Below are positions 2,016 through 25,833 of a stretch of DNA of 34,690 bases, piece after piece. The notes beneath the pieces are model-generated. The model saw only the letters and a list, made by a program, of their open reading frames with translations, ran no database searches and was not told the origin of the DNA. Positions within the stretch are counted from its first letter, which is position 1; each line of letters begins with the position of its first letter. The translations under genes and the position numbers were made by a program. Source of the stretch: an uncultured Mycoplasmatales bacterium (GTDB lineage: Bacteria > Bacillota_I > Bacilli_A > Mycoplasmatales > Mycoplasmoidaceae); assembly GCA_949422915.1 (NCBI GenBank), contig CASPLF010000007.1, positions 1-34,690 on the forward strand, written 5' to 3'.

Positions 2016-2158
2016 ATACGCTCCCATCTTCACAGTAGATTAATCTTATTATGAAAGTGGGCAAATAAAGGTACTTAAATACTCTCTATTTTTGTTCAAA
2101 ATTATTTCACGTCTAAAGTTATTTGTGGAAATGGGTTAATTCCTATCGTCTCTACCAT

Positions 2159-2194
2159 ATAAAAAACGCCAAGTAATTATTTACGTTTTTTTGA
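2159..2194 (-). terminator. Terminator after the BspA-like gene
   Basis: An A6CG ... CGT6 hairpin arm pair encloses about 15 bases, with T-rich flanks on both sides. The stop codon of the large minus-strand gene (2177-2179) lies in the loop. The hairpin is modest, so this call is moderate. Confidence 0.5.
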
Positions 2195-5100
2195 TTTACT
2201 TTTTTTGTTTTTCTTTCTTTTAACTAACAAAATAATTAAGATAATTAAACCAATTAGAGTTACACATCCAATGGCTGTTCCTAATATTATTAGAAAAGTA
2301 TTCATTGGGGATATTTTACAATTGAAATAATTAGTTTTTAATTGATAACCGTATTTTGATTCTGTAATAATAATTCTTATGTTACCAGTTCAAGCGTGTT
2401 TTGCGTTTATTGAAATTTTACCATTAGAATCTATGGTTATACCCAAACTAGATAAATCAGTTCCATCTTCTGCTTCTAATCTAAATGAGAAGTTTTTAAT
2501 GTCAGGAATTAAATCATATGTTTCACCTTTTGCATTAATATACTTGATGTTTTCAGTAATGATGTTAGCATAGTCATTAGTGAATTTATCACCAACAGCA
2601 GTAGAAATGTTACCGATATTACATTCATCTACAAATTTAATTCCTGCATATAATTTGTCATCGCTAGGATCTTTAGGGAAACGAGATAATCATTGTTGAG
2701 GGAAGAAATTTAAATTTGGATATAAGTCTTCAGTGCCATCCACTACATATACTTTAGCGCTACTTGACAAATTAGGATATCATGAATCTCCTCCTAAAGT
2801 AATTGCGCCATCTTCATTAGAATCTAAATATAAGTGTTGTGATGATCAATATAAATGAACTGAAGTAAAAGTAGGACCAGGTATGTCTTGTGTAGTACCA
2901 TCAGCAAGGTGGTTTGTAACAGCGGCAAATGCTTTATCTTGGATTGCTTCAACACTATTTGGTATTGAAAAATCCCCCGTTAAGCTTTCGCATCCACCAA
3001 AAACATAATCATAATCATAGTAAGGGCTACTCTCACCAATTATCTTTAACGAAGTTGCTTCTTCAAGATTGATTGATTGTAAAAGATAATTTCTATTAAA
3101 TGCTCCTTTACCAATAAATTTTAAATTTTTTGCAAGACTAAAATCAACTTCTGTTAAATTACATCTTTCAAAACAAAAGTTATTAATTGATTGAAGGTTT
3201 TTTGGTACTATTAATTTTCCAGTAACTTTTGTATAACCAAAGGCGTTATCACCCAACTCTTCAATTTCTTCAGGAAGACCAACTATTCCTTCTCTATTTG
3301 AGTCAAGAACAGTTTCTAAGTTTTGACATACATAGAAAGCACGTGTACCTATTTTCTTAAGTGCTTTACAATTAGTCATATCTACAGTTTGTATTTTTGA
3401 ATCGTAAATAGGTTTTTTATTATCTATTTCTAAATTTCTTGAGAAAGAGGAAGAACCAATATATTCGATGTTGTCGGGTAGAATTAAATCCATGAATTGA
3501 TCGGTATCATTTAAAACACTAAAACATCCTCAAAAGCATGTGCCTTCAATTGATTTTAAATCATGTAAATTACTCAAATCTAATTTTGTTGGTTCATCTG
3601 GATCAAACCCTTCAATACCTTCGCAATCGCTATTGAAAAACGCTCTATAGTCAATACTTCTCAAGCTAGTTGCCTTATTTATATTTGCATATTTGATAGA
3701 ACAGTTATTAAATGCTGATTCACAAATTCTTTCAAGTTTTGAACATTTTGAAAAATCAACAAAGTCACAAACAAAATCTCCCAAAGTATTGTAAACAGCG
3801 AATGCTTCTCTTCCTATAAATAATAAATCACTTGGTAAAATTAATTTTTTAATAGGACCAGCAGATATCACACATTTTGAAGAAATCGCTGTAATTTTCT
3901 TGCCTTGATATGAATCATTGATTGTAATAGATAAATCAGTAGTAAGAGAAGCAATTGTTAAGCTAGTTAATATATAACTTTCTTTATTCTTTTCGTCTGT
4001 ATATAAATCTAAAGTTGCATCTCCATTGATAATTGTTCCCTTATCAGAAGATAGTATGTCATTTGCAGCAACATGAATGGTTTCATGTGAATATGGGTTT
4101 TCACCTTGAAGTAAATTAGAAGGTTCAATTCATGGCTCAAATGTTTCAGCAGTATCGATCTTATCAAAAAAGTTATCAACACCATAATAATATTGTGCTG
4201 TATTTTCTAATACATGAATTTTTGTTTCTTGTTCTCCAGTACCAATGTTTGGATGTCAATCGATTGATAAATCTATTTTGTCATCTAAACTTGTCAATTC
4301 TTGAGCTGTTCAGTTGAAATAGATATCAGAGAAAAACACTTGTCTCTCAATTCTGTTTCCAAATGCACAAGCGCCTATAGATCTTACTGAAGATGGGATT
4401 CATAATTCTCCACTTAGTTTAGGACAATTAGCAAATGCATAGTTTTCTAATATTTTTAATTTTGTACATTTTGTGAAATCAATGTTTTCTAAATTTTCAT
4501 TTCCACTAAACGCATTATTTCCTATTTGTTCTATGTTTTTAGGAAAAACAACAGATGTTAAAGCACATCCTTCGAAAACACCACCATCAATTCTATATAA
4601 ATTTTCACATTCATCTAAATTTACTGTTGTTAGAGCAGGACATTTAGTGAACGATCCTTTATACATTCTTTGAAGTGTTCTTGGAAAAACTACTTCTGTT
4701 AATAATGCATTGCCTTCAAAGCAATTTGCACCAATTTCAGTAATGCTAGTATTAGATAAATCTATTTTTGTTATGGCAGAATTAGAATTGGTATTTTCAA
4801 ATACTTTTTCTCCTAAATATTTTAACGATGGGCAATTGATTTTAAATCCATCTTCTGGAGTTCCTAATTTAAGACAACCACTAAATACTTTCGCTCCTAT
4901 ACTATTTAATGAAGTGGCACCAGATAAATCCACATTTCGAAGAATGTTGCAATATGAAAAAGCTGAATCTTCTATTTTTTGCAATTTTGGGTTGTTAGGA
5001 AATACAACTTCTTCTAATTCATCACAACTTCCGAATGCACTTTTTCCAATAACCGTTAATGCTTGGGCTTTAGAAAAATCAATTTCACTAATTGAGGAAC

Positions 5101-5617
5101 CATAGAACCCTCATAAAATATGGGTTAAAGTATTTGAAATAATTAGTTTTCCTTGGGTTGCTTGTCCAAAAACTTTTTCAGTAATTCTAGTAATATTAAA
5201 TTCTCCAGTATCATCAATTTTGATCTTTGATCCAATTTCATAAACTGTATTTGCGCTTGTTACTAATCCTTCACTTCCAACAATATGATATGCTTTCTTG
5301 AATGTCATATTGTCTTCTTCATATTCTTTTACCAAACGAATTTTTATATAACCTGTTGCATCTTGACCGGTTTCGCTAACTCTTTTAATTACTTCATTAG
5401 CAGAAACTATTTTTATTTCAGATAAATATTCAACTTTACTGTTTGTAGTTTTTGAATCTTCATTTTCAAGAACGTTAGTAGTTTCATTATCTAAAGAATT
5501 GTCTTTTTTATCCAAGTTAACATTACTAGTATTAACGCTTGACATAATTGCAGGACAACCCAATATTCCAGTGCTTAAGCTTGCTGATATCATTTTCTTG
5601 ATTACTTTTTTATTCAT
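2177..5617 (-). CDS. BspA-like leucine-rich-repeat surface protein, C-terminally anchored
   Basis: One frame of 1146 aa when UGA is Trp. The N-terminus MNKKVIKKMISASLSTGILG-C21 has a lipobox-like ILGC, then a Thr/Asn/Ser-rich linker. Residues about 170-410 and 583-920 hold BspA-type repeats (LRR_5): 'L..IG..AF..C..L..V', for example ALTVIGKSAFGSCDELEEVV. A non-repeat domain lies between them (about 430-580), and a beta-rich, Trp-containing region follows. Residues about 1107-1131 form one membrane helix (FLIILGTAIGCVTLIGLIIL), followed by a Lys/Arg tail. A clear Shine-Dalgarno (AAGGAG) precedes the ATG. Such proteins bind host proteins or cells in other bacteria; that role is inferred here. 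Having both a lipobox and a C-terminal anchor is unusual. Confidence 0.9.
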
Positions 5618-5643
5618 AATTTACTCTCCTTATTTATAGACAA

Positions 5644-5680
5644 AAAAATCTACTAGTTAAAAATTACCTAGTAGATTTTT
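5644..5680 (-). promoter_or_regulatory. Strong hairpin in the leader of the BspA-like gene
   Basis: A perfect 13-bp stem (AAAAATCTACTAG at 5644-5656 with CTAGTAGATTTTT at 5668-5680) lies 27 bases upstream of the BspA-like ATG and is followed on the minus strand by seven T. It has terminator form. Promoter-like boxes (TTGTTA, TATATA) lie above it on the minus strand, so transcripts would have to pass it. Possible roles are attenuation, or simply insulation from upstream transcription with a start just below it (TATAAAT near 5630-5638). Confidence 0.6.
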
Positions 5681-5765
5681 ACACAAGTTTGAATTTGCTT
5701 TATATATGTCCATATATAACAACATATAACAACTTAATAATTTGTCGATTACAAATAAAATTATA

Positions 5766-5786
5766 TGCATTTTTAGTAAAAATGCA
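5766..5786 (-). terminator. Hairpin below the carB relic, possible old terminator
   Basis: A nine-bp stem TGCATTTTT / AAAAATGCA with a three-base loop, about ten bases after the last stop of the carB relic. On the minus strand it is followed by an AT-rich stretch, not a clean T run. It is probably the former carB terminator. Confidence 0.4.
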
Positions 5787-5796
5787 AGGTCGTTTC

Positions 5797-6033
5797 TTAC
5801 TTAGTGTCTATTGTAGAAACTCTTAGTGTTGTTTCATCTAAAACTTAAAGAACAACTTTAACTGTATCTAATGAAGTAAATAATGGTAAAGCTTCTTCTC
5901 TATCTTTCTTTGTTACAGTAGCAAATACAATTCCATAATTTTGGATCTTCATTTTAATAGCTTGCATTGCATTATAGAATGCGCGGTTTAATTTATCATC
6001 ATAACCAATTGCTTTACCGGTAGACTTCTGTCA
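5797..6033 (-). pseudogene. carB: Relic of carbamoyl-phosphate synthase large subunit (C-terminal end)
   Basis: The minus-strand frame from 6033 reads WQKSTGKAIGYDDKLNRAF, then YNAMQAIKMKIQNYGIVFAT, then VTKKDREEALPLFTSLDTVK. It aligns by eye with the start of the CarB MGS-like C-terminal domain: K-S-T-G-E-v-M-G, then F-x-x-A-f-x-K-A-x-x-A, then G-x-V-f-x-x-v-x-x-k-D-K-x-e. The frame hits TAA at 5845-5847, then runs on as VLDETTLRVSTIDTK to a second TAA at 5797-5799. Nothing of the other thousand residues is present, and a terminator and the lipoprotein gene lie directly upstream. This is inactive debris of a pyrimidine or arginine pathway gene. Confidence 0.6.
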
Positions 6034-11781: not shown

Positions 11782-14103
11782 ATGATTGTTTCTAAAAAAG
11801 CTTTATGTAAGATAATTCCAGAATTAAAAAATGTTAGTGATGAACAAATCGCTAAAGCTTTTAATAACTCTGGATGTGAAGTAGAAAGAGTTATTCATCA
11901 TGAACAAGTAAATAACTTAGTTATTGGTAAGATTATTAGTTTAGAAAAACATCCTAATGCAAATAAGCTTAACGTTTGTCAAGTTCAATTGGATGCTAAC
12001 GGAACCACTCATACAATTGTTTGTGGTGCTACAAATTTACAAGTAAATAAATATGTAATTGTAGCTTTGCAAGGCGCCAAGATGGTAGATGGCAGAGTAA
12101 TTGAATACAAAGAATTACGTGGAATTTTGTCTCAAGGAATGATTTGTGCTTATAGCGAATTAACTTCATTTGTAGATTACTTAAGTCCAACAGAAGATAC
12201 AAATATCATTCTTTTAGATGATGCTAAAATAGGCGACACTGATGTATTCAAATACATCAATCTAGACGATACAATTTATGATTTATCATTACCATCAAAT
12301 AGAAATGATCTAAATAGCATCTATTCTATTTGCCAAGAATTAAGTGGGTATTTTGGTTTTAATTATCAAAACACTTTACCAGTTAACAATCTGATTAACA
12401 CTAATAAACTAGACGTTACATTAGATTCTACATGTAAAGGTTTAGTGTTGTTAAAACTTAAAGCTAATTTAATTACTGAATCTGATTGACAAGTTAAATC
12501 TTATTTAATGAACAACGGTATTGTTCCGATAAACAATCTTTTAGATGAGCTTGCTTTAATCTCGTTATTTAATAACGTTTCTATTGTTGTATATGACTAT
12601 GACAAAGTTGGTTCAAGCATTAATTTAGGATTATCTAACACTAATGTTAAGGCTAAATTAAACAATAAAGAACTTCAAATTTCCAAAGAAGATCTTGTTA
12701 TTAGCAACAAAAATAACCCAGTTGGTTTAGCTGGCATAGCAGCTTTTGATGAATATAAACCAGACAACAACACAAAAAATTTCTTAGTAGAAATTGGTAA
12801 CTATGATTTTAGATTTGTTAGAGCATCAATGGTTAAACATGATTTATATTTAGATTCTGGTAGAAGATTATCTAAACCATTGTCTAATTGATACATTGAA
12901 AAATCATTAAGTCAATTTAAAAATGCTGAAATAGTTTACAAAAACTTAAAACTTGAAGAATCAAAGGTTATTCCAGTAGATTTTGCTGATGCAAACAAAT
13001 TCTTAGGTGTCAATGTGTCTAAAGAAGAAATTACTTCTAAGTTAACACAATATGGATATTCGTTTAAAGATGATAAAATTATAGTTCCTCCATATAGACT
13101 TGATATTGAAATTTGACAAGATATTTATGAAGAAATTTTAAAGGTTGTTGATATCAACAAAGCAAGCGGAATCAGTGTTAACTTATCACCAATCTTAAAT
13201 GATCAAAACATTGAATACAACAAAATTAATGAAATTAAAAAATTAATGAATGAAAATTATTTTACTGAAGTTAAATCATATAACTTAGTAAATAAATCTT
13301 CATTAGACACATTTAATATTTTCAATATTAAGGATTACATGAAAATTGCTAATCCATTAAATTCGAATCATGAATATTGAAGAACAAATTTAATTGAATC
13401 ATTATTAGAAATTTACAAATATAACATTTCATATAAAAATAAGATTCAACCAATTTTTGAAATCCAAAAAATTTACACTCAAAATAATACTGAATGAAAT
13501 TTAACTTGTATTAGTGAACAATCAGTTAATTTAGATAAGGTTAATAAAATTAATCTTGTTTATAATGTTTCTTCATTAAAATCAATCATTAATTCTTTAG
13601 CTAAAATTTTTAATATTGAATTTTCTTATTTCCCAACTAAAGAATCAAACATCTATTACCAACAAGAAACTTTATCGATTTATTGTTCAGGACAATTAGT
13701 GGGTTATGTTGGTAGAATTAGAAATTCTTGTTTAAAGTCTTATAGTTTAGACAATAAACCAATTTACTTTATTACAATAAACTTAAATTTGTTATTTAAG
13801 TTATATAAACCACAAGATATCCATGTTCAATATGCAAGCAAACTTCCAACTGTATACAAGGATATCTCATATGTATCAACATTAAACATTGATACAATGC
13901 AAGTTTTAGAAAGTCTTCAAAAACTTCCTTTCATTTTTTCATATGAATATATTGATCTATTTAAAATAGATGAAAACAAGTATTCTTACACATTAAGAGT
14001 TTACTTTAAGAATGATAAAGTATATTCTTCTGAAGAAATAGACCAAATGATGAAAGAATTACAACATTTACTAATCACATTACATTGCGAAATTAGAAAA
14101 TAA
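11782..14103 (+). CDS. pheT: Phenylalanyl-tRNA synthetase beta subunit
   Basis: 773 aa. The N-terminal tRNA-binding (EMAP/OB) domain is seen at about 40-150 (VIGKIISLEKHPNANKLNVC, IVCGATNL), then the B3/B4 editing region. The B5 domain follows (VPVDFADANKFLGV, IIVPPYRLDIEIWQDIYEEI), and the C-terminal FDX anticodon-binding domain has YASKLPTVYKDISYV. The protein is somewhat divergent in the editing domain, where some mycoplasmas lose activity; I cannot judge activity here. The stop codon is the first three bases of a 33-bp terminator that recurs at 16971, across the restriction-modification island. Confidence 0.96.
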
Positions 14104-14133
14104 AAAAACACCAGACATTAACCTGGTGTTTTT
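14101..14133. repeat. 33-bp direct repeat, copy 1; also a bidirectional terminator
   Basis: Exact match to 16971-17003. It has an 8-9 bp stem (ACACCAG with CTGGTGT plus flanking A/T tracts) and a short loop, and works as a terminator in both directions. It starts with the pheT stop codon. The two copies bracket the restriction-modification genes, as attachment-site or target duplications do. Confidence 0.85.
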
Positions 14134-14155
14134 CAAGAAATTCTAAAATAATAAA

Positions 14156-15649
14156 TTATTTTTTATTAGATTCAATATATTCTTCCATTTTTTTGATAAT
14201 TGAATTAAATGCTTTTTGGTCAATGTCATTAAGTATTGTTGAAATTATAAAGGTTGCTTCATCGCGATGAGAGATTGCATTTCTTTTTTTGCGAACATCA
14301 TGCAATAATGTTGACTCAACTTCAGATAAATTAATTTTTTTAGAAACATCATTTATTCTTTCGACATTGATTCTGCTATTATTTTGAACTTTTTCAAATG
14401 AGAAATCATTAATTTTTTTTGCAAGTTTTTCAAATGCATTCCATGCATCTACATAACTCATGCTTTCGACATTAACATTTTTTGCCAAGGCTTTATTAAC
14501 ATTATTGCCTTTTCAGTCTTTGTAATTTAAATCCTTCTTAGAAGCGTTGTGTTGTTTGCATAACAATTGAGCATTTTTTAAATTAGTTTTTCCACCTTCA
14601 GATCATGGCTTTATATGATCTACTTGTAAATCATCATATGTGTCAACATTACAACCTTCAAATCAACATTTCCCTTTTTGATTGAATAATACAGATTTAT
14701 CTTTTTTATCAAAAAAACGTCTATAGTCACACTTTATGTTTCTATTCATCAAATTAGTTATTGCTATGTAATGAGCATCAATTTTTCATTTTTTAATGTC
14801 ATTTGTTTCTTTAATTCCTAATTGGTAATATTCAATAATATTTTTAATATTTCATTTACCTTTTTGAATGAATTGAGCAATTTGCAAGCAAATTTGTATA
14901 TCACATTTTGATGCTTGTGCGATTTGATTGTAAATTTCTATAACTCTTTGAAAATCATTTGCATTACAGTCAAAAGAATTATTTCTATTAATATTTAAAT
15001 TGTATCTTATTGTAATATTTCATGAATTTGAAGAAGGTTTTAGTTCATTGAAATATGCTCTTAAAAAATAGATTGCACGATCTCCTCTTCCGATTTCACT
15101 TGGTACATTGTCTAATATTTTTCCTTGTTGGCAGATAAAATCTTCGAAACCCTTAAATCATTTGCCATACATAAGTCCTCTGATACATTCATATTCAGTT
15201 AAAGGAACAGAATTTGTGTTTATTAAATCAAAACTTTTTTCTTCTAATTCTCTATTTCCTTCTTTAACAACAATGTCGAATTTATAATTTAATAATTCAT
15301 CTTGTCAATCCTTTTGTAAGTTATTAAACGAATATTCTTGGCCATTTATTTTTGTTGTGACCTGTATATTTTCAGAGTTTAGGGGATTACAGAAATAATA
15401 TAAAGATAAAATTCTTTGCTTCCCATCATGTATGTTGTATTTACCATCATCTCTTTTTCAAAAGAATAAAGCAGGTAATTGAATTTTTTCTTGAAGAATT
15501 GACCTTATAACATTACCAGCTTTTGATATATCTCCATCTTCAGTTTGTATGGTCATGTTACTATATATAAATTGCCTTTGTGTTGTTTGATCATAATAAA
15601 GTTCTTTATTATTAATCATTTCAAATATTTCTTTTACAGTTTTTCTCAT
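14156..15649 (-). CDS. DUF262 and HNH-domain endonuclease, likely restriction partner
   Basis: 497 aa when UGA is Trp. The N-terminal DUF262 (ParB-like/GmrSD-N) domain shows the DGKQR motif at 75-79, preceded by QRQFIYS and IRSILQEKIQLP. A C-terminal HNH nuclease follows: Cys328-x4-Cys333, D344-H345 (LQVDHIKPWSEGG), N356, Cys364-x2-His367 (LLCKQHNASKK). An alpha-helical tail of about 110 aa ends the protein. Its ATG overlaps the methylase stop by one base (TAATG), with AGGAGG just upstream, so the two are translated together. DUF262/HNH proteins occur in modification-dependent restriction and as partners of methylases. The pairing here favours a restriction role; the target is unknown. Confidence 0.8.
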
Positions 15650-16791
15650 TATTTTCTCCTCCTTGCTATTATTCCGTTAAAAAGTTTTTTACCATTTAAA
15701 ACTTGTCATTTTTCATTGTATTTATTGTTTTCAAATTTTGATAAATCAAAAGGTGTTTTATCTGGGTTTGAATTGTGCCAAGCAGTATAATGCGTTCCAT
15801 ACCATTCAAAATTAGTACCATCTAATGAGTCTAAAGCACCAACACTTGAAAAGAATCATCCATAGTAGTCATCAGGCAAAGATTTAAAATTGTTCAATCT
15901 TATAGGATGACTTCCATCTTTCATAATTACAGTTTTCATAATTGGATAATCATCTTTATAAATTTCATATTTAATTCCACTTTTAAAAGGAGATTTTACC
16001 CTTTTTTCTTCTGCATCTTTATAAGATGTTATTCAATCAGTTGCTACTATCTTCTTTTTCCTTACAATTATCATTTTTTGAATGTCCCAATTTTCAAATG
16101 GTATATGGTTATCAATATTAAATCCCAAATAACATTCTTTTAGCATTAAGTGAAGCCCAACTCTCGGGTTACCCCGAGAGAGAAAATCTGAAAGTATTAT
16201 GAAATTTGTCTTACTTTGAATCAATTTATTAAGAAAATCTTTAATGCAAGTAAAAGCGGGATTTGTTATTACAATGTCAAAGTCTTTGTAATCATAAGTT
16301 TTATAATCTATACCTTGTAATTTTGCTGGGTTATAACCTGAGAAAGTTCAAGATTTTGGTTTTCAAATTTTTGCATAATTTAAAACAGCTTTTATAAAAT
16401 TACATCTAGGCCCATGGACCTCTTTGTCGTTTATAAAAAATTTTTTTGCATTATTATCATAACTAATATCAATTATAGAAATGGTATCAGTTTCACAAGG
16501 ACAAGCTCGGTTATTTTCATCACATGTTAAATTTACTACTTCATCAACATCACCATTTTCATTAAAACGAAACTTAATTCCATAAATTTCTGGGTGATCG
16601 GAAAACAAATCTCAATCAAATGGTGATAATCCATTCTTTTTAAAAAAATAACTTGATGGATAGTTTTTGATTTCATCAATTATTGATTGGAGAGGAGTAT
16701 AGCATTCATCATTACTTATAGTTCCTGATGGAGTTTTTTGCCCAGAATCATAATTGATTTTGTTCAAAACTTTGTTCTGTTTTTGAGACAT
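15649..16791 (-). CDS. EcoRI-family adenine-specific DNA methyltransferase
   Basis: 380 aa with UGA as Trp. It resembles the EcoRI-type N6-adenine methylases: SNDECYTPLQSIIDEI near the N-terminus, then an ND-type region, then DIVITNPAFTCIKDFLNKL with motif IV NPAF at 176-179. FIILSDFLSRGNPRV and KECYLGF follow. The family normally has NPPF, so the Ala in place of the second Pro is odd and could affect activity. It precedes and overlaps the DUF262/HNH gene by one base. There is no Shine-Dalgarno close to the ATG, and a 30-bp near-perfect palindrome begins ten bases upstream. The likely role is to protect the host genome from the partner nuclease; the recognition sequence is unknown. Confidence 0.75.
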
Positions 16792-16800
16792 AACAAAAAA

Positions 16801-16830
16801 TCATTCTATAGGTAATTACCTATAAAATGA
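16801..16830. promoter_or_regulatory. Near-perfect 30-bp palindrome in the methylase leader
   Basis: An 18-bp perfect core (TATAGGTAATTACCTATA, 16807-16824) extends to 30 bases with one mismatched pair (16806/16825). It lies just upstream of the methylase ATG and downstream of an AGGAG. It could be an operator for autoregulation or an RNA hairpin controlling translation. Confidence 0.6.
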
Positions 16831-16880
16831 TGCTCCTATAAATGCTTATGTTTAATAAGCTATTGTTTAATGAACTCTTA

Positions 16881-16901
16881 CTCTCTCTCTCTCTCTCTCT
16901 C
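16881..16901. repeat. (CT)10 dinucleotide repeat upstream of the restriction-modification operon
   Basis: Ten uninterrupted CT units plus one C, read as AG on the operon's strand, about 90 bases upstream of the methylase start. It is the only such dinucleotide repeat I noticed in the window. Its position suits slipped-strand variation of promoter spacing. Confidence 0.85.
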
Positions 16902-16970
16902 GAGCGCCTTAATTATTTTTTTGTTCATATTTATCTTTAGTTTATTATATAAAAACTACAATAATTCTTT

Positions 16971-17003
16971 TAAAAAAACACCAGACATTAACCTGGTGTT
17001 TTT
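16971..17003. repeat. 33-bp direct repeat, copy 2; terminator of tmRNA
   Basis: Exact copy of 14101-14133. It lies four bases past the 3' CCA of tmRNA and serves as its terminator on the minus strand. It marks the right end of the island. Confidence 0.85.
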
Positions 17004-17007
17004 TATA

Positions 17008-17409
17008 TGGTGGAGATGACGGGAATTGAACCCGTTTCCACAAATAACCTTCTATCAAAGTCTACAGTTTAGTTTTAATTTAGAGCATTCATTAAACATT
17101 ATTAGGTAATAAAACGAACCTATGTTTAACTAATCCGATGGGATTAATTCTTCTTATCGGAGTCAAAGAATATAGCTATTTATGTTAATGTATTAATGTA
17201 AATAGCAAACACTAATACCTATTCCAAAGTTAAATTAAGCTAAATATGCTAAATTAAGGTTTTGGTTTGACATTTGGTTAATCATGAATGCTTCGTCCAT
17301 GTTAACGTTGTCATTGTTGTTGTCTGCATTTAAGAAGACCTTGAGCTATAAGGGGCAAACCCCACTGCATTTGGTAGTCAATTATTCATGTCGAAGCCTT
17401 GACATCCCC
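17008..17409 (-). ncRNA. ssrA: Transfer-messenger RNA (tmRNA)
   Basis: 402 nt on the minus strand. The 5' GGGGATG pairs with the 3' CATCTCC, followed by A and an encoded CCA. The 3' end carries a tRNA-Ala-like T-arm (GGGTTCAATTCCCG). The tag reading frame starts at the GCA complement of 17325-17327 and ends at TAA (17235-17237). It encodes 30 residues: ADNNNDNVNM, then DEAFMINQMS, then NQNLNLAYLA. The AYLA end resembles degradation-signal tails of other mycoplasma tags. With SmpB it rescues stalled ribosomes and marks the product for proteolysis. Its 3' end is a common island insertion site, and an island adjoins it here. Confidence 0.95.
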
Positions 17410-25485: not shown

Positions 25486-25740
25486 ATGAGTAAATATCAT
25501 TACAATATTGAAAAGAAAGAAACTAAAACAAATCCTGGTGTTATTAACTTAACAAAAGTTAAAAAAACCGAAACAGTCAATGGTGGCAGAAAACCTCCAA
25601 AAGTTTCTCTTCGTAATCTTTTTATTCAATTTATGAATAAACAAGAAGAATTTAATAAACGTCAAGAACAGTTTAATAAACGTCAAGAAGAATTTAATAA
25701 AACTGTTATAGATACTTTCAAACGTAATAATCTCAAATAA
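25486..25740 (+). CDS. Small basic protein with tandem coiled-coil repeats, unknown function
   Basis: 84 aa. The N-terminus is charged and probably disordered. The C-terminus carries three repeats of a heptad unit (KQEEFNK, RQEQFNK, RQEEFNK) that would form a short coiled coil and come from a tandem 21-base DNA repeat. An independent TATAAT is six bases upstream. It has no recognisable domain. It resembles in design the 92-aa protein at 19249 and mycoplasma DUF16/UPF0134 proteins. The repeat could expand or shrink by slippage. Confidence 0.65.
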   Translation: MSKYHYNIEKKETKTNPGVINLTKVKKTETVNGGRKPPKVSLRNLFIQFMNKQEEFNKRQEQFNKRQEEFNKTVIDTFKRNNLK

Positions 25741-25779
25741 ATTTTTCAAAGAACTTTTATTTATCTACACTGTAAAATA

Positions 25780-25810
25780 AAAACCAACACTTAATCACGG
25801 TGTTGGTTTT
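25780..25810. terminator. Bidirectional terminator between the 84-aa gene and HU
   Basis: An 11-bp perfect stem (AAAACCAACAC at 25780-25790, GTGTTGGTTTT at 25800-25810) with a nine-base loop and A/T tracts on both sides. It serves HU on the minus strand and the small gene on the plus strand. Confidence 0.85.
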
Positions 25811-25833
25811 TATTAATCAATTTTATCTAACTA

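What the first reader, a model, noticed from the sequence alone, without database searches (positions are those of the whole stretch)
14101..17003. Restriction-modification island between two exact copies of a terminator at the pheT/tmRNA junction
A 33-bp sequence, including the pheT stop codon and a complete bidirectional terminator, is repeated exactly at 14101-14133 and 16971-17003. The second copy is the tmRNA terminator. Only the methylase and DUF262/HNH genes lie between. The simplest history is that pheT and ssrA once shared one terminator and a 2.87-kb unit inserted there, duplicating it. tmRNA 3' ends are known island sites, but the duplicated piece here is the terminator beyond the RNA, and no integrase is present. 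This could be an unusual, recombinase-poor transposable defence unit.
Basis: partly seen in the sequence, partly recalled or inferred. Interest (0 to 1): 0.78.

Follow-up and report, generated by a model that had tools for sequence, protein, structure and literature searches.

The report
Restriction cassette inserted into duplicated terminator
In a small mycoplasma-like bacterium, a two-gene DNA-defence cassette sits inside a transcription stop signal that it left duplicated on both sides; relatives have the empty site, and a second, unrelated defence cassette has done the same thing at another stop signal in two other species, which suggests that such cassettes use stop signals as landing and exchange sites without any recombinase of their own.

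Summary
Confirmed and extended. The exact 33-nt repeat (14101-14133, 16971-17003) is a bidirectional terminator and brackets only an EcoRI-family methylase and a DUF262/HNH nuclease. The nearest relative held (G049, PheT 96%) has pheT, one terminator and ssrA with no cassette there and no homologue elsewhere; G048 (88%) also has one terminator there. So a 2.87-kb unit inserted and the terminator was duplicated.
It is not a one-off. G049 and G011 carry an unrelated RM system (methylase + AlwI-type nuclease) in the recU/hup terminator, flanked by copies of that terminator (44 nt, 43 identical; 64 nt, exact). G000, G048 and G047 have one copy there. In G049 one copy carries a G011-type recU tail, and the RM unit is ~89% identical between the two species while its flanks are ~72%, so the cassette moved between species with breakpoints at the terminators.
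No tyrosine recombinase was found in five genomes, and no serine recombinase in four of them, including all three carriers.
RM insertion with long target duplication is already described in Helicobacter; terminators as target and exchange site appear to be the new part. The step that makes the duplication is inferred. Most RM loci sampled elsewhere in the genus lack the pattern.

The parts
11782..14103 (+). pheT, host gene whose stop codon TAA is the first three bases of repeat copy 1
   Evidence: ORF under code 4; orthologues at 96, 88 and 62% in G049, G048 and G011
14101..14133 (.). Repeat copy 1: bidirectional terminator, facing pheT on + and the nuclease gene on -
   Evidence: exact repeat; hairpin on both strands; single copy in G049
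14156..15649 (-). DUF262-type (DGKQR motif) + HNH nuclease gene, 497 aa, presumed restriction enzyme; its stop codon lies 22 bases from copy 1
   Evidence: PF01844 HNH 34.9 bits over cut-off, PF03235 below cut-off; PADLOC REase_II 3.9e-15; homologues paired with the methylase in G048 and G007
15649..16791 (-). EcoRI-family adenine methyltransferase gene, 380 aa, first gene of the operon, overlapping the nuclease start by one base
   Evidence: PF13651 28.8 bits against cut-off 26.4; alignment with G048 and G007 keeps the TNPxF motif
16785..16836 (-). Leader of the operon: AGGAG, then a 14-bp hairpin, then a U run, then the methylase ATG; the hairpin lies between the Shine-Dalgarno-like sequence and the start codon
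   Evidence: fold -16.2 kcal/mol, 0 of 200 shuffles as good; same order in six further RM operons
16880..16905 (-). (GA)n dinucleotide tract in GCGCTCGAGAGAG..TAA, shared with the G048 RM operon; presumed phase-variation tract
   Evidence: sequence comparison; one such tract in 788 kb of control stretches, and that one heads an RM operon
16971..17003 (.). Repeat copy 2: the ssrA (tmRNA) terminator, also isolating the RM operon from ssrA transcription
   Evidence: exact repeat; right flank matches the empty site of G049
17008..17409 (-). ssrA (tmRNA), intact; insertion is beyond its 3' end
   Evidence: ARAGORN; identical gene in G049
25771..25817 (.). recU/hup bidirectional terminator, single (empty) in this genome; target of a different RM insertion in G049 and G011

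Best explanation
The window carries a complete two-gene Type II-like restriction-modification cassette (GA tract, hairpin leader, methylase, nuclease, no terminator of its own) that inserted into the single bidirectional terminator between the convergent genes pheT and ssrA, leaving one full terminator on each side. Copy 1 now ends both pheT and the cassette operon; copy 2 ends ssrA and shields the cassette from it, so no host gene is harmed. Insertion is shown by empty sites. The likely mode of spread is recombination at the terminators: a cassette flanked by, or circularised with, one terminator copy crosses over with the matching terminator of a new host by general homologous recombination, because the terminator is the best conserved patch between otherwise diverged flanks. 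This is directly supported for the sister cassette at recU/hup and is inferred for this one. How a terminator is first duplicated at a new site is inferred: most likely a break or template switch at the hairpin, without a dedicated recombinase.
For: Exact 33-nt repeat bracketing only the two RM genes. Empty site with one terminator in G049, and one terminator without the island in G048; no homologue of either gene in G049. The terminator loop ACATTAA is shared by both G000 copies and G049 and differs in G048, so the duplicate was made from the terminator of this lineage. Same structure for an unrelated RM system (methylase + AlwI-type nuclease) in G049 (44 nt, 43 identical) and G011 (64 nt, exact), with single-copy sites in G000, G048 and G047. 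In G049 the hup-side copy has a G011-type recU tail in front of it although G049's own recU end differs; identity between G049 and G011 is 81-95% inside the unit and 63-77% in the flanking genes, changing at the terminators. No PF00589 in five genomes; no PF00239 in G000, G049, G011 or G047. In these three loci the last cassette gene ends within about 25 bases of copy 1.
Against: No reads, circle or excision product could be examined. Twenty D12- or C5-methylase loci from other members of the genus show no terminator repeat, nor do the RM units G048:C7, G049:C5, G022:C3 and G003:C5. In G011 a pyk-terminator duplication flanks membrane-protein genes, not an RM pair, so the process is not RM-specific. 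Transfer of the recU/hup unit fits linear homologous recombination as well as a circle. The genomes are draft MAGs.
Confidence: 0.62

Rival explanations
1. Random insertion with long target duplication followed by selection: RM units insert anywhere with variable duplications, and only insertions that duplicate a whole terminator between convergent genes persist, because they harm no gene and isolate the operon. Terminators are a filter, not a target.
For: Long, variable target duplications of RM units are described in Helicobacter (PMC3031569, PMC3874152). The duplications here vary from 33 to 64 nt and their ends are not fixed within the gene tails. RM loci elsewhere in the genus without terminator repeats exist.
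Against: Does not explain why the interspecies exchange of the recU/hup unit has its breakpoints at the terminators, unless homologous recombination is added; no RM insertion with a duplication outside a terminator was seen in the stretches scanned.
Confidence: 0.3
2. Deletion instead of insertion: the cassette between two terminators was ancestral, and G049 lost it by recombination between the copies.
For: Exact direct repeats can delete, and G049 has one copy.
Against: G048, the outgroup by PheT identity, also has one terminator and no cassette there, with its RM homologue at another place; both G000 copies carry the loop shared only with G049. Independent losses would be needed.
Confidence: 0.05
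3. Site-specific integration by a tyrosine or serine recombinase acting in trans, with the terminator as att site, as for islands at tmRNA genes.
For: Attachment-site duplication and choice of the same site in two species look like att sites. One resolvase-family gene exists in G048.
Against: No PF00589 match in any of five genomes while all 14 control genomes ring; no PF00239 match in the three genomes that carry the insertions; two unrelated terminator sequences are used.
Confidence: 0.08
4. Artefact: the second terminator copy is a misassembly or binning error.
For: The genome is a 56-contig MAG.
Against: A 33-nt repeat is shorter than usual short reads; flanks on both sides match G049 in order; the same pattern occurs independently in G049 and G011.
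Confidence: 0.02

Closest known systems
Insertion of restriction-modification genes with long target duplication (Nobusato et al. 2000, Helicobacter pylori; cited in PMC3031569, PMC1643837, PMC3874152)
   Same: RM genes without a recombinase, flanked by a long direct repeat that is single in a related genome; variable repeat length
   Different: Here the duplicated target is a bidirectional terminator between convergent genes in each of the RM cases, repeats are 33-64 nt rather than in the order of 100 nt, and for one unit there is evidence of exchange between species at the terminators. The original 2000 paper was not held and was not read.
MhoVII RM cassette of Mycoplasma hominis between the 3' ends of pyr and serS (PMC12898733)
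   Same: Variable RM cassette between the 3' ends of two genes in a mycoplasma, methylase first, TA repeat tract, predicted terminators and palindromes
   Different: Associated with a 96-nt deletion of host DNA and not with a duplicated terminator
Genomic islands integrated at tmRNA (ssrA) 3' ends by tyrosine integrases (general knowledge)
   Same: Same neighbourhood, beyond the ssrA 3' end, with flanking direct repeats
   Different: The duplicated piece is the terminator beyond the gene, no integrase in the unit or genome, and the same structure occurs at recU/hup
EcoRI-family adenine methyltransferases (PF13651) and DUF262/GmrSD_N plus HNH nucleases
   Same: Methylase passes the Pfam cut-off; nuclease has a DGKQR motif and an HNH domain
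   Different: GmrSD_N score is below its cut-off (23.3 against 33.2); recognition site and activity unknown
Phase-variable mycoplasma methyltransferases with AG repeats (M. mycoides subsp. capri type III, PMC3498834)
   Same: Dinucleotide AG/GA tract in a methylase operon
   Different: Here the tract lies about 90 bases upstream of the start codon, not in the coding region

Membership tests
RM insertion with long target duplication | RM genes flanked by a direct repeat longer than usual transposon target duplications | tested here: met
   33-nt exact repeat
RM insertion with long target duplication | Related genome with a single copy of the repeat and no insert | tested here: met
   G049 and G048
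RM insertion with long target duplication | No recombinase in the inserted unit | tested here: met
   only two ORFs, methylase and nuclease; no PF00589 or PF00239 in this genome
RM insertion with long target duplication | Movement shown experimentally | not testable with these tools
   needs culture or reads
Integrase-dependent island at tmRNA | Tyrosine or serine recombinase in the element | tested here: not met
Integrase-dependent island at tmRNA | Repeat lies within the tmRNA 3' end | tested here: not met
   repeat ends 4 bases outside the gene
Type II restriction-modification system | Adjacent methyltransferase and endonuclease genes that persist as a pair in other genomes | tested here: met
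   pair conserved in G048 and G007
Type II restriction-modification system | Cognate methylation and cleavage of one sequence | not testable with these tools
   no methylome or enzyme data; predicted models were too poor to use (pLDDT 43 and 58)
Conventional transposon | Terminal inverted repeats of the insert | tested here: not met
   The repeat finder lists no inverted pair joining the two ends of the insert

The most novel reading that the evidence does not exclude
Bidirectional terminators act as attachment sites for a loose class of recombinase-free defence cassettes in these mycoplasmas: each cassette ends at a borrowed terminator, carries one terminator copy when it moves, and swaps between genomes by recombination at conserved terminators, with a shared hairpin leader (Shine-Dalgarno, hairpin, U run, ATG) that keeps incoming RM genes under control.
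Probability: 0.35. Interest if true: 0.8.

Novelty: new variant of a known kind. Interest (0 to 1): 0.62.

Why it matters
How RM systems jump into genomes without a transposase has been unexplained since long target duplications were noticed around them. Here are two unrelated RM systems at two sites in a small clade, each with empty sites and one with traces of its route between species, all pointing at the bidirectional terminator as the place where the exchange happens. That makes the question testable: terminators are short, predictable and present in every genome, so the rule 'RM cassettes between convergent genes with a duplicated terminator' can be searched for widely.

Tried and rejected
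Homologues of the methylase in genome contigs (0 confirmed) and of the nuclease in viral contigs (0); plasmids gave one distant EcoRI-family methylase and phages four distant HNH/DUF262 proteins, so no plasmid or phage source is indicated. AlphaFold2 on both proteins gave models too weak to search, so no fold comparison was made. Twenty D12- or C5-methylase loci in the genus were searched for flanking repeats and gave no terminator repeats. A first repeat scan missed the G011 pair because of its complexity filter; corrected. Hairpin repeats in G049:C5, G011:C1 and G011:C3 were put down to tandem or repeated lipoprotein paralogues, from the ORFs around the first two and the lipoprotein-like repeat sequence in the third. 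Literature searches for RM units and duplicated terminators found nothing on point. A first pattern search used a wrong sequence and is void.

Full report
Observation. The 33-nt repeat is real, exact, and unique in the genome. It is the only long-spaced direct repeat of this length in the window. Both copies fold as terminator hairpins on both strands. Copy 1 begins with the pheT stop codon and copy 2 lies four bases beyond the tmRNA gene. The window is a whole contig (G000:C7) of a 724-kb, 56-contig draft genome; its nearest named relatives are MAGs labelled uncultured Mycoplasmatota bacterium.

What lies between. Under genetic code 4 two minus-strand genes overlap by one base: a 380-aa protein over the Pfam cut-off for EcoRI-type adenine methyltransferases, and a 497-aa protein with an HNH domain over cut-off and a DUF262/GmrSD_N-like N-terminal half below cut-off but with the DGKQR motif. 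The pair is conserved in G048 and G007, so it is most likely a Type II-like RM system. Activity is not shown.

Empty sites. G049 (PheT 96% identical) has pheT, one copy of the terminator and ssrA in direct succession and no homologue of either gene. G048 (88%) also has pheT next to ssrA with a single, slightly different terminator, about 170 bases of other spacer and no cassette; its homologous RM pair lies at another locus with unrelated flanks and no terminator repeat. In G011 and G047 pheT is not followed by ssrA. Insertion in the G000 lineage with duplication of the terminator is therefore the parsimonious reading. Both G000 copies have the loop found in G049 and not in G048, so the duplicate comes from this lineage.

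The same structure elsewhere. Comparing the window with G049 showed a second case. G049 has 2.2 kb inserted in the terminator between the convergent genes recU and hup; the insert codes for a 204-aa methylase-like protein and a 483-aa AlwI-type nuclease, unrelated in sequence to the window's nuclease. The terminator is present on both sides (44 nt, 43 identical). G011 has the same RM system at the same place, flanked by an exact 64-nt repeat that includes the last codons of recU and the whole terminator. G000, G048 and G047 have one copy there.

Trace of transfer. Between G049 and G011 the RM unit is 81-95% identical per 100 bases (mostly 87-93), while the flanking genes are 63-77%, and the change falls at the terminators. 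In G049 the hup-side terminator copy is preceded by a recU tail of the G011 type, although G049's own recU ends differently. The unit thus came from a G011-like genome in which it already had its duplicated recU tail, and it entered G049 by exchange within the terminators. A circle with one terminator copy and a linear double crossover would leave the same product.

No recombinase. No phage-integrase-type gene was found in any of the five close genomes, while all 14 control genomes gave matches. No resolvase-type gene was found in G000, G049, G011 or G047; G048 has one. The genomes are drafts of 77-92% estimated completeness, so absence is strong but not absolute.

How general. In about 0.9 Mb of stretches from G049, G011 and the window, the hairpin-bearing direct repeats were the three RM cases, repeats ascribed to lipoprotein paralogues, and one at the pyk terminator of G011 (58-column alignment including the pyk tail, 5 differences) around two membrane-protein genes, next to a GmrSD-type gene. 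So the process is not confined to RM cargo. Twenty RM-type loci in more distant members of the genus show none, nor do the G048:C7, G049:C5, G022:C3 and G003:C5 RM units. The pattern therefore marks some insertions, perhaps recent ones, in one clade.

Leader. The methylase gene is preceded by AGGAG, a 14-bp hairpin, a U run and the ATG. The order AGGAGG-like, hairpin, U run, ATG also precedes the first methylase of RM operons in G048, G049 (two operons), G011, G003 and G046, which belong to several methylase families. A scan of 841 control ORFs in G049 and G011 gave 11 loose matches, of which the only one with the full form was itself an RM operon. G007 and G022 lack it. The criteria were loosened and the list read by eye after the pattern had been seen, so this is a lead, not a test. 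The G048 and G049:C5 operons share nearly the same leader before unrelated methylases, which suggests exchange of coding parts behind a common head. A GA tract sits upstream in G000, G048 and G049:C5; in 788 kb of control stretches the only tract of six or more GA units is the one before the G049:C5 operon.

Mechanism. Shown: insertion, duplication of the terminator, recurrence with an unrelated RM system, breakpoints of an interspecies exchange at terminators, no recombinase of the two main families in the carriers. Inferred: exchange by general homologous recombination at terminators, and a break or template switch at the hairpin for the first duplication. A selection-only account remains open: insertions that duplicate a whole terminator between convergent genes harm nothing and isolate the RM operon.

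Known or new. RM insertion with long target duplication is known from Helicobacter (cited in PMC3031569, PMC1643837, PMC3874152; the original was not held). A mycoplasma RM cassette between the 3' ends of two genes is known from M. hominis, with a deletion instead of a duplication (PMC12898733). No paper found here describes terminators as the duplicated target or exchange site. I file this as a new variant of a known kind.

Noticed in passing
L193 5452-8141 (G049:C5), L081 4957-7589 (G048:C7), L223 5701-7742 (G003:C5), L144 7535-9120 (G046:C16), window 16785-16836: Hairpin followed by a U run between a Shine-Dalgarno-like AGGAGG and the ATG of the first methylase gene in RM operons of several unrelated families; almost absent from other genes scanned.
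   Followed up: partly
window 2115-5887: Block of LRR-type surface-protein genes 93.6% identical to the DNA downstream of ssrA in G011, beginning with a decayed copy of a tmRNA 3' end and terminator, while most of the surroundings are far more diverged; G049 has about 180 bases between window 1783 and 6154. Looks like a horizontally acquired block that brought a piece of its old ssrA neighbour.
   Followed up: partly
L216 12950-13007 and 14579-14635 (G011:C4): pyk tail plus terminator duplicated around a TM2-domain gene and a 195-aa membrane-protein gene, beside a GmrSD_N-type gene; same geometry as the RM cases but other cargo.
   Followed up: partly
window 25486-25740: Small coiled-coil protein gene (NKRQEEFNKRQ repeats) between recU and the hup terminator, absent there in G049 and G048; related copies lie on both sides of the RM unit in G048 (L081 3632-3924 and 8245-8385) and in many places in G047.
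   Followed up: no
L153 8590-8613, 10726-10755 and copies 1.3-2.2 kb away: Repeated GGTATACC..GGTATACC palindromes near methylase genes in G019; possibly operator sites of a control protein.
   Followed up: no
L216 end (G011:C4, last 60 bases): Contig ends in a long run of G, probably a sequencing or assembly artefact.
   Followed up: no
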